Assembly: GCA_040756715.1 (NCBI GenBank)
Contig: JBFLYE010000173.1
Coordinates: forward strand, 1-6,993
Length of the DNA stretch: 6,993 nucleotides
Origin: JBFLYE01 sp040756715 [NCBI: bacterium]
GTDB lineage: Bacteria > UBA9089 > UBA9088
Direction of reading: 5' to 3'
In this document: positions 15 to 5,855 of the stretch, one piece after another
Layout: the number at the start of each line of letters is the position of its first letter
Position numbering within the stretch: position 1 is the stretch's first letter
The notes under the pieces: generated by a model
What the model was told of the DNA's origin: nothing
Database searches by the model: none
The model's input: the letters and a program-made list of their open reading frames with translations, nothing else
Made by a program: the position numbers and the translations under genes

Positions 15-1520
15 ATGAAGAGAATTTTTCTTGGTTTGATGGTCAGCGGGGTTGTTTTTGGGCAACCAGACCATAGGCTTTCCATAAATGGAAACCTTGG
101 GTTTGAGGTAAGATACATAGACATCACCAAGGATGTTGATGAATATCCAAAGGATTTTTCATATACCGTGGAATTATCAGGGGTTGGAAAGCTTGATAAA
201 AATGATGTGGGAGGGATTTTGAATTTTAGCTATGACAAGCTTAATAAGACAGATGTCCAGAATGCCTATCTTAGCCTTGACCTTCCATCAGGAAAGCTTG
301 AGGGAGGCGATGTTTTATTAGACATTTCTGATTTTACAATAAAAAACAGCACAATTCGTGGTGTAAAGGGAGATTTTGAAGATAAAGGGGTATTGTTTGC
401 TTATGGTGTATCAAAAGAGAAAAAAGAAGAGGGTTCAACTACATCTGGGCAATATCGCCAGTGGCTTGGTATAGCAAGGGTTTCTTCGGTTTTTAGAGAT
501 AACACTTGGGGAATAACATACATTCAAGCAGAGGATGACCCTGCCTCAGTTGCTCTTTCTAATACAAAGCCTATAATAAATAAGGTTTTTGAAGGTGATA
601 TTGTTATTCCTTTATCAAGAGCCCTCTCTTTTAAATCAAACCTTGCATTTTCTGAGTATGATAAGGATAAAAGCAATAGAGAGGAGCTTTATAAAAACAA
701 GGCATTTTTAAGTGGATTTTCTCTTAATTTTAGCAAGTTTTTCTTTGAAGGGATATACCAATATATTGAGCCAAATTTTTATACAGCAGGAAATACAGGG
801 TGTGATGTTAATTGGGAAGGAATTAAACTTAACACAAAATACATTCCATCTGATAAACCTGTTGAATTTAATGTGAATATAAAATCTTACGATGATAACC
901 CAAGTGATAGGGAAGTAAATACAACAAAAACAAGGATTTATGAGATAAAATCAGAGATTACACCAAGGCAATTTCCCGATGTATCTATTGATTACAAAAA
1001 TACGAAGGAAAAAGATAATACAATTTCTCCTTTAAGGATAGCAAATGAGTTTTCCTTCGGCATTTCTTGTGGCATAAAAGATATAGACACATCATTTAAT
1101 TATAGCAGAAGCTCCTCTGATAATAAAAAAGACAATGAATACGATTCCCTGCTTTCCTCTTATTCTTTAAATGCATCTGGGCCATTAACAAAAAAGGTCT
1201 CCTTTTCTTCCTCCATTTCTTTCATCACATCTGAGGCAGGAGCAGGGGCTCAAAAGACAGAGCAGGATTCAAATTTTTATCTTTTATCCGCAAGCTTTCA
1301 ACCCACCCAATCTTTAAGGATAATCCCCTCTTATGATTATTCAAAGACAAAGGAAAAAATAGGAACAATTTTAGAAGAAAATATCACATCCTTTTCCTTT
1401 GCTTATTCCCTTTCTGTAAAATATCAGATAAATATGGAATATAAAAATATAGACCATAAAGAAAAGGATAATGATTATAAGGGAGATTCTGTGGGAATTA
1501 AAATGTCATGCCTTTTTTAA
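15..1520 (+). CDS. Exported protein, predicted outer-membrane beta-barrel, function unknown
   Basis: This 501-residue protein starts with a short signal peptide (Lys-Arg at residues 2-3, a hydrophobic stretch to about 16, likely cleavage near VFG-Q at 16-17). The rest is rich in Ser, Asn, Asp, Lys and aromatics. Runs of 8-12 residues alternate polar and hydrophobic side chains, as in transmembrane beta-strands, and acidic/lysine-rich loops separate them (clearest from about residue 355 to the end). The chain ends in phenylalanine (SCLF), the usual C-terminal signature read by the BAM machinery. Residues about 95-175 (GGDV, then IRGV, then QYRQW) recall a pattern I associate with uncharacterised outer-membrane proteins of uncultured bacteria, but I cannot assign a named family. 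It could be a porin-like channel or a surface scaffold. The start is set by the AGGAGG at 4-9. The exported coiled-coil gene 66 bases downstream may be a partner. Confidence 0.72.
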   Translation: MKRIFLGLMVSGVVFGQPDHRLSINGNLGFEVRYIDITKDVDEYPKDFSYTVELSGVGKLDKNDVGGILNFSYDKLNKTDVQNAYLSLDLPSGKLEGGDVLLDISDFTIKNSTIRGVKGDFEDKGVLFAYGVSKEKKEEGSTTSGQYRQWLGIARVSSVFRDNTWGITYIQAEDDPASVALSNTKPIINKVFEGDIVIPLSRALSFKSNLAFSEYDKDKSNREELYKNKAFLSGFSLNFSKFFFEGIYQYIEPNFYTAGNTGCDVNWEGIKLNTKYIPSDKPVEFNVNIKSYDDNPSDREVNTTKTRIYEIKSEITPRQFPDVSIDYKNTKEKDNTISPLRIANEFSFGISCGIKDIDTSFNYSRSSSDNKKDNEYDSLLSSYSLNASGPLTKKVSFSSSISFITSEAGAGAQKTEQDSNFYLLSASFQPTQSLRIIPSYDYSKTKEKIGTILEENITSFSFAYSLSVKYQINMEYKNIDHKEKDNDYKGDSVGIKMSCLF

Positions 1521-1586: not shown

Positions 1587-2594
1587 ATGAAGAAATTTTT
1601 ATTTCTTTTAAGCTTGCTTTCAATGAAAGTATGGGCTGAATTTGGGACACCGACCAATATTACTAATATGGTTGAGATCCTACAGAAGAAGGTAGAAGCT
1701 GCCTGGGCAGCTGAGGCAAGGGCTGTAGCCATTGCAGAGGAGGCAAGGATTGCTGAGGCTGAGATGGTAGCTGATGCCCTAGCCGCTGAGGAGGCTTTAA
1801 AAGAAGCAGAGGCTTTGGCTAGGGTAACTCTGGCAGATAAGGATTATGCAGAAGCCAAGGCAAAGTCAGCTGAGGCAGCGGCAAAGGCAGCATTAGCATC
1901 AGCCGATGCAGCAAAGGCAGCACAAGCATCTGCTTATGCAGCCCTTGAGGATGCAAAGGCTACAGAAGCAAGGGTGCAGGCTGAGCTTAATGTAGCTAAA
2001 GAGGAATTGCTCTTTGTAAGGAAAAAGAGGGAAGAGGCGATCAGGCTGGCAAAGGAATTTTATTTGCTGGGTCAAAAGGCATTGACTGATGGAAATGTTG
2101 TATCTGCGGTAGAATTTGGGAAAAGGGCATCTTCCCAGATAGAAATGGCAAATAAGGCAAAGGATGAAGAATTGGCAAAGGAGCTTGCCTTGAAGGAAAC
2201 AGAGAGGAGGCTTAATGCCGTAATTGAGGGTGTTAAGGCAAATTTAGAGAGGCAAAAAACAGCTGTTATAATGGCAAAGGAGCAGGAGTCCCGTGCGATT
2301 ATGGAGGCAGAGGCAGCAAAAATAGCCGCAAGGAGGGCAGAGGAGACATTTGAAGTATCAAAGGCTACAGAGCTTAAGGTAAGGGCATTGGCAGAGGCAG
2401 CAGCTGAGGCATTTAAGTGGGCAAAGGCAAAGAGCGAGATTACAAAGCAAGCCCAAGCAAAGGCATTAGCTGAGGCAGAAGCAGCAAGATTTGCAGAAGA
2501 GGCAGCAAGGCTAGCCGCAAAGCAGGCAGAGGAAGAAAGAAAGAAGGCAGAGGAGGTATTAAAGGAGGCAGAAAAGGCGATAAAAGGATTTTGA
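1587..2594 (+). CDS. Exported Ala/Glu/Lys-rich coiled-coil protein, function unknown
   Basis: This 335-residue protein has a signal peptide at residues 1-17 (MKKF, then a Leu/Phe-rich core) and a likely signal peptidase I site after KVWA. The mature part is almost entirely helical and low in complexity: Ala, Glu, Lys and Arg repeat with seven-residue periodicity at about residues 28-150 and 195-333. At DNA level the codons GCA and GAG make recurring GCAGAGGCAGC-like words. A less repetitive segment at about 150-190 (AKEFYLLGQKALTDGN, then AVEFGKRA) looks like a helical hairpin and faintly recalls DUF4398/TPR-type periplasmic helices; this is a weak impression. The protein is probably an elongated periplasmic or surface rod, possibly a spacer working with the beta-barrel protein encoded just upstream. 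Composition alone makes database hits (TolA-like, tropomyosin-like) unreliable. The HU gene follows 11 bases downstream. Confidence 0.72.
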   Translation: MKKFLFLLSLLSMKVWAEFGTPTNITNMVEILQKKVEAAWAAEARAVAIAEEARIAEAEMVADALAAEEALKEAEALARVTLADKDYAEAKAKSAEAAAKAALASADAAKAAQASAYAALEDAKATEARVQAELNVAKEELLFVRKKREEAIRLAKEFYLLGQKALTDGNVVSAVEFGKRASSQIEMANKAKDEELAKELALKETERRLNAVIEGVKANLERQKTAVIMAKEQESRAIMEAEAAKIAARRAEETFEVSKATELKVRALAEAAAEAFKWAKAKSEITKQAQAKALAEAEAARFAEEAARLAAKQAEEERKKAEEVLKEAEKAIKGF

Positions 2595-2899: not shown

Positions 2900-3068
2900 C
2901 AATCAAAATAAAAGAAGCAGATTCCTCTGTGATGTTTGTGGCTATGAGTGGACGGTAAGGCACAAAGAGGATCTTTTAAGGAAAAATTTATCACTAGAGG
3001 ATGACCTTTCAGAAGACAATCCAACAAAATGCCCTTCCTGCGGAAATTCATACATCTCTGAGCTATGA
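2877..3068 (+). CDS. Small zinc-ribbon protein
   Basis: This 63-residue protein has two CxxC knuckles, Cys18/Cys21 (CDVCG) and Cys52/Cys55 (CPSCG), 30 residues apart, a spacing suited to binding one zinc ion in a zinc ribbon. Between them is a Trp followed by a charged, partly helical stretch. The only usable start is TTG at 2877: an in-frame stop (TAA, 2865-2867) lies just upstream and no ATG or GTG comes before the first cysteine pair. The ribosome binding site is poor (AAAGAAAAAAA), so translation probably depends on ribosomes finishing the HU gene, which it overlaps by 23 bases. The stop overlaps the nuoA start (ATGA, 3065-3068). The specific role is unknown; nucleic-acid binding or a complex I assembly function are both possible, with no direct evidence for either. 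Confidence 0.75.
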   Translation: MRTEDLYNNQNKRSRFLCDVCGYEWTVRHKEDLLRKNLSLEDDLSEDNPTKCPSCGNSYISEL

Positions 3069-3427
3069 ATGATTACATTTGGGTTCTCTTTTTTCTCTTA
3101 GTTGGTCTTGTATTTGGAGGAGGGGCTCTTTTTCTAAATTGGTTTTTAAAGCCAAAAAGAAAGGATAAAAGAGGATTTTCTTCCTATGAGTGTGGAGAAA
3201 AGCCTATTGGCTCTGCTTATATCCAATACAATACAAAATATTACCTCTATGGTCTTATATTCCTTATCTTTGATGTAGAGGTTGTCTTTATCCTTCCCTG
3301 GGCTTGTATCTTTCGGGATTCTCAAATTTCACCACTTATTTTGCTTATTGAAATGGTAATTTTTATCGCTATTCTTTTAATTGGCTTGATATACGCAGGG
3401 TTTAAAGGGGCATTGAAATGGGAGTAA
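3065..3427 (+). CDS. nuoA: NADH-quinone oxidoreductase subunit A (complex I)
   Basis: NuoA is a small membrane subunit of proton-pumping NADH:quinone oxidoreductase. It sits beside NuoH and the quinone channel. The 120-residue product has the family's usual length and three predicted membrane helices (about residues 4-27, 60-82 and 88-112). The first loop carries the signature YECGEKPIGSA (41-51) with the conserved Cys43, which in homologues becomes exposed on active/deactive switching. FLIFDVEVVFILPWA (66-80) holds the conserved acidic residues Asp70 and Glu72 in helix 2. The C-terminus GALKW is also typical. Its ATG overlaps the stop of the zinc-ribbon gene, and its last 10 bases overlap an unrelated coiled-coil gene instead of meeting nuoB directly. 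Confidence 0.96.
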   Translation: MNDYIWVLFFLLVGLVFGGGALFLNWFLKPKRKDKRGFSSYECGEKPIGSAYIQYNTKYYLYGLIFLIFDVEVVFILPWACIFRDSQISPLILLIEMVIFIAILLIGLIYAGFKGALKWE

Positions 3428-3735
3428 AAGAGCTTACAGAGGCATTTAGAAAGGCAATGGTTGATGTCCTGGTGCCAGAGCTAAGGGAGTTTAGGCAGGA
3501 GATGAGTCTGCGGTTTGAGGAAGTAAATAAAAGGTTTGAGGAATTATACAGGGAAATGGATGGAAGGTTTATTGAGGTTCATAAGGAGATAAGCCTTGTA
3601 AAAGGGGAGATAAGTGCAACAAATAAAATCTTGGAAAGAATTTGGGATAGATTAGACCTTGCTGAAAGGGTAGCTAAATTAGAGGATAGGACAGAGCTTA
3701 TTCTGCACGATTTAGAAATAATAAGAACAAGATGA
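3418..3735 (+). CDS. Coiled-coil protein of unknown function between nuoA and nuoB
   Basis: This 105-residue protein is charged and cysteine-free and is predicted to be almost wholly helical. Spaced R-F pairs (32-33, 39-40, 50-51) and heptad-like hydrophobics over about residues 18-100 indicate a coiled coil, probably an oligomer. It has no signal peptide or membrane helix, so it should be cytoplasmic. Its style ([14 protein letters not shown]) resembles small stand-alone coiled-coil proteins and the N-terminal stalks of some DUF3782-type proteins; I cannot name a family with confidence. The ATG at 3418 has AGGGG about seven bases upstream and overlaps nuoA by 10 bases. The stop overlaps the nuoB start (ATGA, 3732-3735). 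This double overlap shows it is a genuine part of the nuo transcript. It does not resemble any complex I subunit I know. It might be an assembly or accessory factor, or an inserted passenger. Confidence 0.8.
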
Positions 3736-4235
3736 GCATTCTTTCTGACAAAATATTACCACCGGTTATTAAGATGCCTGGGGGAGGCATTATTGTTTCA
3801 TCCCTAGAGGCCATTCTTAACTGGGGAAGGGGTTCATCTTTATGGCCTATGACATTTGGCTTGGCTTGTTGTGCTATTGAAATGATGGCAACCGGGGCAT
3901 CGCATTATGACTTTGATAGATTTGGCTCTGGTGTATTTAGACCCTCTCCCAGGCAGGCAGACCTTATGATTGTTGCCGGCACAGTTACAAAGAAAATGGC
4001 AGATAGGCTTAAACTCCTTTATGAACAAATGCCATTTCCAAAATATGTTATTGCGATGGGCTCTTGTGCCATATCAGGCGGCGTCTTTAATACCTATTCC
4101 GTTGTTCAGGGCGTTGATAAGATAATTCCGGTTGATGTTTATGTTCCTGGTTGCCCACCCAGACCAGAGGGGCTTTTATATGGGCTGTTAAAGCTTCAGG
4201 AAAAAGTTAAAAAGGAACCCCTTATTAAAAGATGA
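3732..4235 (+). CDS. nuoB: NADH-quinone oxidoreductase subunit B (complex I)
   Basis: NuoB (the PSST/20 kDa subunit) carries iron-sulfur cluster N2, which passes electrons to quinone at the interface with NuoD. The 167-residue product contains all four cluster ligands: the tandem Cys46-Cys47 in [11 protein letters not shown], Cys112 in MGSCAISGG, and Cys141 in [10 protein letters not shown]. The motif [21 protein letters not shown] (starting near residue 64) is classic for the family. Its length is typical. The related hydrogenase small subunits are excluded because of the tandem CC motif and the gene neighbours. It starts inside an ATGA overlap with the coiled-coil gene and ends in an ATGA overlap with nuoC, so it is translationally coupled on both sides. 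Confidence 0.97.
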
Positions 4236-4687
4236 GTCTACAGGAGGTTATAAAAGAAAGATTTCCAAGTGCACATTTTGAAGAAAATTGTAAAGACCTT
4301 ACATTCAGGATAGAAAAAAACATTCTCCTTGAATTTATGGATTTTCTTTACAAGGAGCTCTCCTTTTCATTCCTTACAGATATTTGCGGCGTTGATTATC
4401 CAAAAAGGGAAAAGAGGTTTGATGTTGTCTATCACCTATATTCCATTGAAGAAAACAGAAGGATTTGTGTAAAGGTAGGTATTTCAGAAAACGAAGAGGT
4501 AGAATCCGTCTCGTGCATATGGAAGGGAGCAAACTGGCAGGAAAGGGAGGTATTTGACCTTTTTGGGATAAGGTTTTTGAATCATCCAGACCTAAAGAGA
4601 ATCCTCCTTCCCGATGAATGGGAAGGTCATCCTTTAAGGAAGGATTATCCATTGGAAATTGCAAATTTTAAATTGAAAGATGAATAA
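4232..4687 (+). CDS. nuoC: NADH-quinone oxidoreductase subunit C (complex I, 30 kDa)
   Basis: NuoC is the 30 kDa-type hydrophilic subunit that packs against NuoD and NuoI in the connecting module; it binds no cofactor. The 151-residue product has the domain features in order: [10 protein letters not shown] at 48-57, the VVYHLYSI strand near 65-72, and the signature [25 protein letters not shown] at about 102-126 (core [10 protein letters not shown]), followed by [10 protein letters not shown] at 132-141. It is at the short end of the family and separate from NuoD, unlike the NuoCD fusion of E. coli. ATGA overlap with nuoB upstream; its last 8 bases overlap the nuoD start. Confidence 0.96.
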
Positions 4688-5855
4688 AGTTCACGAAATG
4701 CTTATCAATATGGGTCCCCAGCACCCCGCTACCCATGGGGTCTTAAGGGTTCTCCTTACCCTTGATGGCGAAAGGATTGTCTATCCAGAAGCCCATATTG
4801 GCTATCTTCACAGAGGGATTGAAAAGCTTGCTGAGGAAAAGAGATATGCTCAATTCCTTCCCATAACCGATAGGCTTGATTATCTATCCGCACCCTTAAA
4901 TAACCTTGCATATTGCTTAGCGGTTGAAAAGCTTGCGGGAATTACCGTACCAAAGAGGGCAGATTATATTAGAATGATATTGGCTGAGCTTTCCAGGATT
5001 GCCTCACACCTTGTCTGGCTTGGAACATCTGCCTTAGACCTTGGTGCATTTACCCCATTCCTCTATACATTCAGGGAGAGGGAGATTATCCTTGATATAT
5101 TTGAGGATTATTGCGGGGCAAGGCTTACCACATCCTGCATAAGAATTGGAGGCGTTCCTTTTGATTTTGATGATAAGCTCATTGAAAAAATAAAGGATTT
5201 TATAAAAATATTTCCCAAGAAGATAGATGAGTATGAGGGGCTTCTTACAAAAAACCCTATATTTCTTAAAAGAACACAAAATGTTGGGATAATTCCAAAG
5301 GATGTGGCAATAAACTATGGCCTTTCTGGACCATCCCTGCGTGGAAGCGGCGTTTGTTTTGATATAAGAAAGCAAGAGCCATATTGTGCTTACAATGAGG
5401 TTGATTTTATTGTTCCCACCGGAAGGGGTATTGGCGATGTCTATGACCGGTATCTGGTAAGGGTTTTTGAGATGAAAGAGGCAACCCATATTATCAAACA
5501 GGCAATTAACAACCTCCCTGAGGGTAAAATCCTTGCCGATATTCCAAAGATAGTCCCACCCCCTAAAGAGAGGGTAAAAAATGAGATTGAGGCTTTAATT
5601 CATCACTTTATCCTGATGGAAAGAGGGTTTGAGATTCCTAAGGGAGAGGCTTACAGAAGCATTGAATCCTCAAAGGGAGAGCTTGGGTTTTATATCATTT
5701 CAGATGGCTCTAATATACCTTATAGATTAAAGATAAGGGCACCCTCCTTTGTCAATATTTCCTGCCTTCCTTCCATTGGAAAGGGGGCAATGATGGCTGA
5801 TATGGTTGCCATCATTGGAAGCCTTGATATTGTCTTAGGCGAGATAGATAGATAG
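4680..5855 (+). CDS. nuoD: NADH-quinone oxidoreductase subunit D (complex I, 49 kDa)
   Basis: NuoD is the 49 kDa-type subunit. It forms most of the quinone head-group cavity next to cluster N2. The 391-residue product is full length and shows the family landmarks: GPQHPATHGVLR at 12-23 with the quinone-site histidines, GYLHRGIEKLAE at 41-52, DRLDYLSAPLNN at 64-75 (Tyr68 matches the conserved quinone-binding tyrosine), GARLTTSCIRIGG at 146-158, GPSLRGSG at 217-224 and the closing MADMVAIIGSLDIVLGEIDR. The two CxxC motifs that hold nickel in [NiFe] hydrogenase large subunits are absent, so this is a true complex I subunit. The start overlaps nuoC by 8 bases, with AAAG just upstream. No nuo gene follows: three bases after the stop the sequence becomes an ArgB remnant on the other strand, and no terminator hairpin is visible between them. 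Confidence 0.97.
   Translation: MNKVHEMLINMGPQHPATHGVLRVLLTLDGERIVYPEAHIGYLHRGIEKLAEEKRYAQFLPITDRLDYLSAPLNNLAYCLAVEKLAGITVPKRADYIRMILAELSRIASHLVWLGTSALDLGAFTPFLYTFREREIILDIFEDYCGARLTTSCIRIGGVPFDFDDKLIEKIKDFIKIFPKKIDEYEGLLTKNPIFLKRTQNVGIIPKDVAINYGLSGPSLRGSGVCFDIRKQEPYCAYNEVDFIVPTGRGIGDVYDRYLVRVFEMKEATHIIKQAINNLPEGKILADIPKIVPPPKERVKNEIEALIHHFILMERGFEIPKGEAYRSIESSKGELGFYIISDGSNIPYRLKIRAPSFVNISCLPSIGKGAMMADMVAIIGSLDIVLGEIDR

What the first reader, a model, noticed from the sequence alone, without database searches (positions are those of the whole stretch)
3418..3735. Coiled-coil gene wedged between nuoA and nuoB
nuoA and nuoB are among the most stable neighbours in bacterial genomes, usually directly adjacent. 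Here a 105-residue, soluble, heptad-rich protein sits between them, overlapping nuoA by 10 bases and nuoB by 4. The overlaps mean it is translated in step with the two subunits flanking the quinone site. It could be a lineage-specific assembly chaperone, a supernumerary subunit, or a passenger gene captured by an overlapping insertion. A new accessory subunit would be the most novel possibility in this window.
Basis: partly seen in the sequence, partly recalled or inferred. Interest (0 to 1): 0.72.

Follow-up and report, generated by a model that had tools for sequence, protein, structure and literature searches.

The report
Passenger coiled-coil gene inside nuo operon
A small gene for a rod-shaped protein sits between two respiratory-complex genes, but relatives of it have slipped into junctions of unrelated housekeeping operons in the same bacterial group, so it is most likely a dispersed passenger gene and not a new part of the respiratory complex.

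Summary
Window 3418-3735 (+) encodes a 105-residue protein (X) between nuoA and nuoB, overlapping them by 10 and 4 nt. In the other species held of its genus X also follows nuoA and precedes nuoB, on two contig ends that share exactly 127 nt. In 11 other genomes of the phylum with nuoA visible upstream of nuoB, X is absent.

X belongs to a family that no Pfam or NCBIfam model describes: a conserved N-terminal cap, a coiled coil of variable length, a short C-terminal motif. At least 13 distinct members were found. Others sit in hemC|purA (empty in the sister species), rpsG|fusA (empty in the neighbouring genus), tRNA-Val|thrS (decayed remnant in a sister species) and recA|alaS of a planctomycete. 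Substitutions in two orthologous pairs show constraint on the protein, mostly from the other pair.

Later domestication in this genus is not excluded. X has unusually few silent differences between the two species (dS 0.07 against 0.27-0.67 for ten compared genes), suggesting recent spread by recombination or constraint on the DNA.

The parts
3418..3735 (+). X: small single-helix coiled-coil protein, 105 aa, member of a dispersed family without a Pfam or NCBIfam model
   Evidence: ORF; paralogues in own genome; sister-species copy; AlphaFold2 single helix
3418..3492 (+). conserved N-terminal cap of the family (about residues 1-25, [12 protein letters not shown] core)
   Evidence: alignments A1-A3; motif scan of fetched loci
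3493..3651 (+). variable coiled-coil part; the sister species has an extra 7-residue repeat and an extra 28-residue (84-nt) repeat here
3652..3735 (+). C-terminal motif (LDxxERVxxLE) and tail; stop codon overlaps the nuoB start (ATGA)
3065..3427 (+). nuoA, left border; its last 10 nt contain the start of X
   Evidence: Pfam PF00507, E 1.6e-31
3732..4235 (+). nuoB, right border
   Evidence: NCBIfam TIGR01957, E 8.9e-74
4232..5855 (+). nuoC (4232-4687) and nuoD (4680-5855), overlapping in the same way as X

Best explanation
X is a passenger gene of a dispersed family of small coiled-coil proteins. The unit seen at the best-resolved site (hemC|purA) is a ribosome-binding site plus the reading frame. 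It comes to lie between two co-directional genes of a housekeeping operon, abuts or overlaps the neighbouring start codon, and so would ride on the host transcript without blocking downstream genes. The protein is predicted as one long helix that should need itself or a partner to be stable; its coiled coil changes length by tandem repeat gain and loss. In this genus it landed between nuoA and nuoB and stayed. Shown: family membership, filled, empty and decayed sites, constraint on the protein in the pooled pairs, length change. Inferred: self-assembly, co-transcription, spread by recombination through conserved flanks, lack of its own recombinase (read by eye), and absence of a role in complex I.
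For: Two more copies in the same genome, one between hemC and purA. That junction is empty in the sister species, where hemC and purA overlap by 13 nt; the filled copy brings AAAAGGAGG upstream of its ATG and its TAA shares a base with the purA ATG. rpsG|fusA is filled in G014 (X-fusA also in G018, without rpsG); in 12 of 18 fusA loci rpsG is upstream with no cap-bearing ORF, including both genomes of the neighbouring genus. tRNA-Val|thrS is filled in G010 and holds a remnant with lost cap and broken frame in G005 of the same genus; the cap occurs in 1 of 19 thrS loci, and two others scanned have tRNA-Val then thrS without it. recA|X|alaS in a planctomycete contig. nuoA|nuoB lacks X in 11 of the 12 phylum genomes outside the genus that have this nuoB; the twelfth, G016, is cut by a contig end. 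X of the nuo locus resembles a Lindowbacteria copy (44%, 51.5 bits) more than its own paralogues (33.9 and 31.9 bits). Overlaps are common in this operon.
Against: X is kept between nuoA and nuoB in both species held of the genus. Its silent-site divergence is far below its neighbours', which could mean selection on it. No transposase, target duplication or excision product was seen, and none was searched for beyond reading ORF lists and junction alignments, so mobility is inferred from position. Some family members lie outside conserved operons (G014 C183, the G001 C17 / G000 C184 pair, G047, G086, G227). hemC lies beside purA in only 2 of 12 purA loci, one filled and one empty, so loss in G001 cannot be told from gain in G000.
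Confidence: 0.74

Rival explanations
1. X began as a passenger but has been taken over in this genus as an accessory or assembly factor of complex I, binding near NuoA and NuoB as they are made.
For: Kept at the same place in both species held of the genus; very low silent and replacement divergence; three antiporter-like subunit genes elsewhere in the genome suggest a working complex I.
Against: The coiled coil differs by at least 35 residues between the two species, unlike a tightly fitted subunit; relatives in the same genome and phylum sit with unrelated genes; the other phylum genomes that could be read lack it at this site.
Confidence: 0.13
2. X is the left-over stalk of a DUF3782 / PD-(D/E)XK nuclease protein that lost its nuclease domain.
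For: Proteins of that kind in the phylum give weak matches to X; one of them matches DUF3782 and PDDEXK_10 and sits between hdrA-like genes (the hdrA name is recalled).
Against: X and nine relatives scanned give 0 of 10 matches to DUF3782 or that nuclease family at E 0.001; the nuclease proteins have another N-terminus and do not match the cap motif; the shared part is repetitive coiled coil.
Confidence: 0.06
3. The low silent divergence reflects selection on the DNA or RNA of X itself (for example a structured or regulatory segment) and not recent exchange.
For: Another orthologous pair of the family (C184/C17) also has low silent divergence, dS 0.137.
Against: The low-divergence zone reaches about 60 nt into nuoA and about 50 nt into nuoB, as a recombination tract would; no RNA structure test was run.
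Confidence: 0.07

Closest known systems
23S rRNA intervening-sequence protein (PF05635) genes
   Same: Small protein gene (helical by recall); in this phylum one copy also sits between nuoA and nuoB, in G018
   Different: Different family; the G018 copy is flanked by an identical 34-nt direct repeat and lies about 100 nt after nuoA and 70 nt before nuoB; X matches no such model
DUF3782 / PD-(D/E)XK_10 stalk nucleases
   Same: Coiled-coil stretch; several proteins of this look in the phylum, one of them confirmed by Pfam
   Different: Carry a nuclease domain and another N-terminus; X has neither
PHROG families 5553, 6701, 12015 (function unknown)
   Same: Profiles of phage proteins that match the repeat-rich part of several relatives of X, best E 1.4e-12
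   Different: X itself and 4 of 9 relatives scanned have no match at 1e-5; most matched stretches leave out the cap
Bdr-type repeat proteins of Borrelia (name recalled)
   Same: Small repeat-built coiled-coil proteins (recalled); one weak Borrelia plasmid match, 42 residues
   Different: The match covers 40% of X, residues 24-65, not the cap
Supernumerary subunits and assembly factors of complex I (recalled)
   Same: Small proteins tied to NuoA/NuoB would be of this kind
   Different: Family members of X occur beside unrelated genes; no evidence of binding

Membership tests
Complex I accessory subunit or assembly factor | Gene found with nuo genes across relatives | tested here: not met
   X in 2 of 14 phylum genomes that have this nuoB; 11 lack it with nuoA visible, 1 cut by contig end
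Complex I accessory subunit or assembly factor | Homologues confined to complex I loci | tested here: not met
   Homologues at hemC|purA, rpsG|fusA, tRNA-Val|thrS, recA|alaS and other places
Complex I accessory subunit or assembly factor | Physical association with the complex | not testable with these tools
   No multimer prediction or experiment available
Dispersed X coiled-coil family (described here) | N-cap motif [RKE][KRE][AVLS][ILMF][VQA][DE][LVTI][LFV][VIA][PA]E[LI] followed by coiled coil | tested here: met
   the motif was drawn from the members themselves
Dispersed X coiled-coil family (described here) | Variable position with filled and empty sites | tested here: met
Transposable element in the strict sense | Own transposase or recombinase, terminal repeats, target duplication | tested here: inconclusive
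   None seen on reading ORF lists and junction alignments; no dedicated search was made. A reverse-transcriptase-like ORF lies near the Lindowbacteria copy (name recalled)
DUF3782 stalk nuclease | DUF3782 and PD-(D/E)XK domains | tested here: not met
   0 of 10 family members; positive example

The most novel reading that the evidence does not exclude
X is one member of a class of minimal gene cassettes, ribosome-binding site plus one coiled-coil reading frame and no recombination gene, that repeatedly settle in the junctions of essential operons across several uncultured phyla and spread between species by homologous recombination through the conserved flanking genes.
Probability: 0.3. Interest if true: 0.62.

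Novelty: new variant of a known kind. Interest (0 to 1): 0.42.

Why it matters
It removes a tempting false lead (a new complex I subunit) and replaces it with a pattern: one small coiled-coil family that turns up inside otherwise conserved operons, including rpsG-fusA, with filled, empty and decayed sites that can be compared directly. If the family moves as a bare cassette without its own recombinase, how it does so becomes testable. It also warns against reading function from operon position alone in such genomes.

Tried and rejected
Family libraries: Pfam, NCBIfam and PADLOC gave only weak matches to many unrelated coiled-coil models, all Pfam ones for ten members below their cut-offs (searches list only the first 25 families). 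PHROGs gave matches of unknown function to the repeat part of 5 of 10 members, not to X at 1e-5. A profile search of solved structures gave 35 weak matches, best E 0.0019, taken as generic coiled coil. Phages, plasmids and viral contigs: no phage match, one short Borrelia plasmid match, 0 of 34 viral candidates confirmed; the phage search used the hemC|purA relative and the plasmid search used X. Scan of named genomes: 3 of 32 candidate stretches confirmed. Wider sampling: 11 of 386 genomes and 3 of 392 genomes of the planctomycete phylum pass E 1e-9; three of the 11 (G012, G013, G028) lack the cap and two of the 3 carry a variant cap. Paper searches on a gene between nuoA and nuoB, genes inserted in operons and related phrases found nothing relevant; I saw search listings only and read no paper. 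A fold search was not run, because a single helix would match anything. The promoter/terminator scan of 2900-4300 found 1 of each against 3.4 and 1.5 expected by chance; other copies were not scanned.

Full report
What is there. Window 3418-3735 (+) is a 105-codon ORF, X, between nuoA and nuoB, with overlaps of 10 and 4 nt. NuoA-D are firm matches to Pfam and NCBIfam; X has none above a curated cut-off. The window is a whole 6993-base contig of a draft genome of 1.55 Mb. Three antiporter-like subunit genes lie on other contigs, so a complex I is likely made. Overlapping junctions are usual here: the 63-residue ORF|nuoA and nuoB|nuoC overlap by 4 nt, nuoC|nuoD by 8 nt, so the overlaps of X do not by themselves argue for joint assembly with NuoA and NuoB.

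Sister species. In G001, the other genome of the genus, nuoA-X ends one contig and X-nuoB begins another; the two ends share exactly 127 nt, which fits an assembly break in a repeat. The order nuoA-X-nuoB is therefore inferred there, not read through. The G001 protein has an extra 7-residue repeat and an extra 28-residue repeat in the coiled coil; the true repeat number across the break is not known.

Phylum. Of 19 phylum genomes (own included), 14 have this nuoB and 5 have no match. X is in 2. In 11 nuoA is visible upstream with no X; in G016 the contig is cut. In the same-order genome G004 nuoA ends directly before nuoB. The script failed to mark nuoA in G005 and G010; for those two I rely, where nuoA runs into the nuoB start. 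Two genomes hold other, unrelated small ORFs in this junction: G018 an S23-type protein and G017 two 93-residue ORFs. Outside the phylum, 16 loci were read of the longer list of nuoB matches: 14 show nuoA upstream, 2 do not show it, and 0 of 16 match X or the cap.

The family. The own genome has two more copies. Profile and motif work gave 13 distinct proteins with the N-cap: 9 in the phylum, in 5 of 19 genomes (G000 3, G001 2, G010 1, G014 2, G018 1), and one each in a Lindowbacteria genome, a planctomycete genome and the two genomes G086 and G227 of one further phylum. This is a lower bound, because weaker matches were partly not fetched. The search profile held one row that I had shortened by hand. 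Relatives outside are rare: 11 of 386 sampled genomes and 3 of 392 genomes of the planctomycete phylum pass E 1e-9, some without the cap. None was found in phage records or confirmed in viral contigs, and the one plasmid match is short; PHROG profiles of unknown function do match the repeat part of 5 of 10 members.

Filled, empty and decayed sites. hemC|purA: filled in G000, empty in G001 with hemC and purA overlapping by 13 nt; hemC is next to purA in only these 2 of 12 purA loci. rpsG|fusA: filled in G014; X-fusA in G018, where rpsG is not upstream; 12 of 18 fusA loci show rpsG upstream and no cap-bearing ORF, among them both genomes of the neighbouring genus (one of the 12, G005, has another 89-residue ORF there); in the remaining 4 rpsG was not found. 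tRNA-Val|thrS: filled in G010; a remnant in G005 has lost the cap and its frame but keeps the 3' end; the cap occurs in 1 of 19 thrS loci; of four scanned for tRNA, all have tRNA-Val upstream, two of them without X. recA|alaS: filled in a planctomycete; no empty site was examined. The G000 C184 copy has lost one base after its ATG relative to its G001 orthologue. Neighbour identities were checked against NCBIfam; the fusA query was a fragment and falls just under its cut-off.

Selection. X against its sister copy: 4 silent changes in 63.5 sites, 4 replacements in 251.5; C184/C17: 8 in 64 and 2 in 260. Constraint on the protein: p = 0.058 for X alone, 7e-5 for C184/C17, 2e-5 for both. Silent divergence of X, 0.066, is below nuoA 0.568, nuoB 0.269, nuoC 0.495, nuoD 0.266, HU 0.303 and the 63-residue ORF 0.673, and below purA 0.348, thrS 0.508, fusA 0.445 and hemC 0.404. 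Fisher tests against the six window neighbours give p from 3e-6 to 0.006 (rounded site counts, not corrected for six tests). The low zone runs from about 3360 to 3780; two blocks at the left contig end look divergent only because the repeat is misaligned there. I read this as probable recent exchange, with constraint on the DNA as the alternative; it is not resolved.

Structure. AlphaFold2 gives a single helix over residues 3-104, pLDDT 92, pTM 0.44. Such a helix is expected to need a partner (inference).

Conclusion. The evidence supports a dispersed passenger gene. A later role in complex I in this genus is possible but unsupported. How the gene moves is not shown.

Noticed in passing
L029:931-1491 (G018, between nuoA and nuoB): A 23S rRNA intervening-sequence protein gene (PF05635, E 5.9e-27) lies between nuoA and nuoB, flanked by an identical 34-nt direct repeat at 936-969 and 1405-1438.
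   Followed up: partly
L030:2033-2662 (G017, between nuoA and nuoB): Two near-identical tandem 93-residue ORFs with a hydrophobic N-terminus and a repeat region sit between nuoA and nuoB; the one scanned has no Pfam match.
   Followed up: partly
window 3360-3780: Silent divergence between the two species is unusually low across X and the adjoining ends of nuoA and nuoB.
   Followed up: partly
L111, upstream of thrS (G005): Decayed relative of X between tRNA-Val and thrS: start and cap lost, frame broken, 3' end kept.
   Followed up: yes
L003:183-617 (G000 C184): The family member has lost one base after its original ATG compared with G001, so its open frame now runs in from upstream sequence.
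   Followed up: partly
window 1587-2594: A 335-residue Ala/Glu/Lys-rich protein without any Pfam match lies upstream of the HU and nuo genes.
   Followed up: no
window 15-1520: A 501-residue protein with only a weak outer-membrane beta-barrel match (E 0.15) opens the contig.
   Followed up: no
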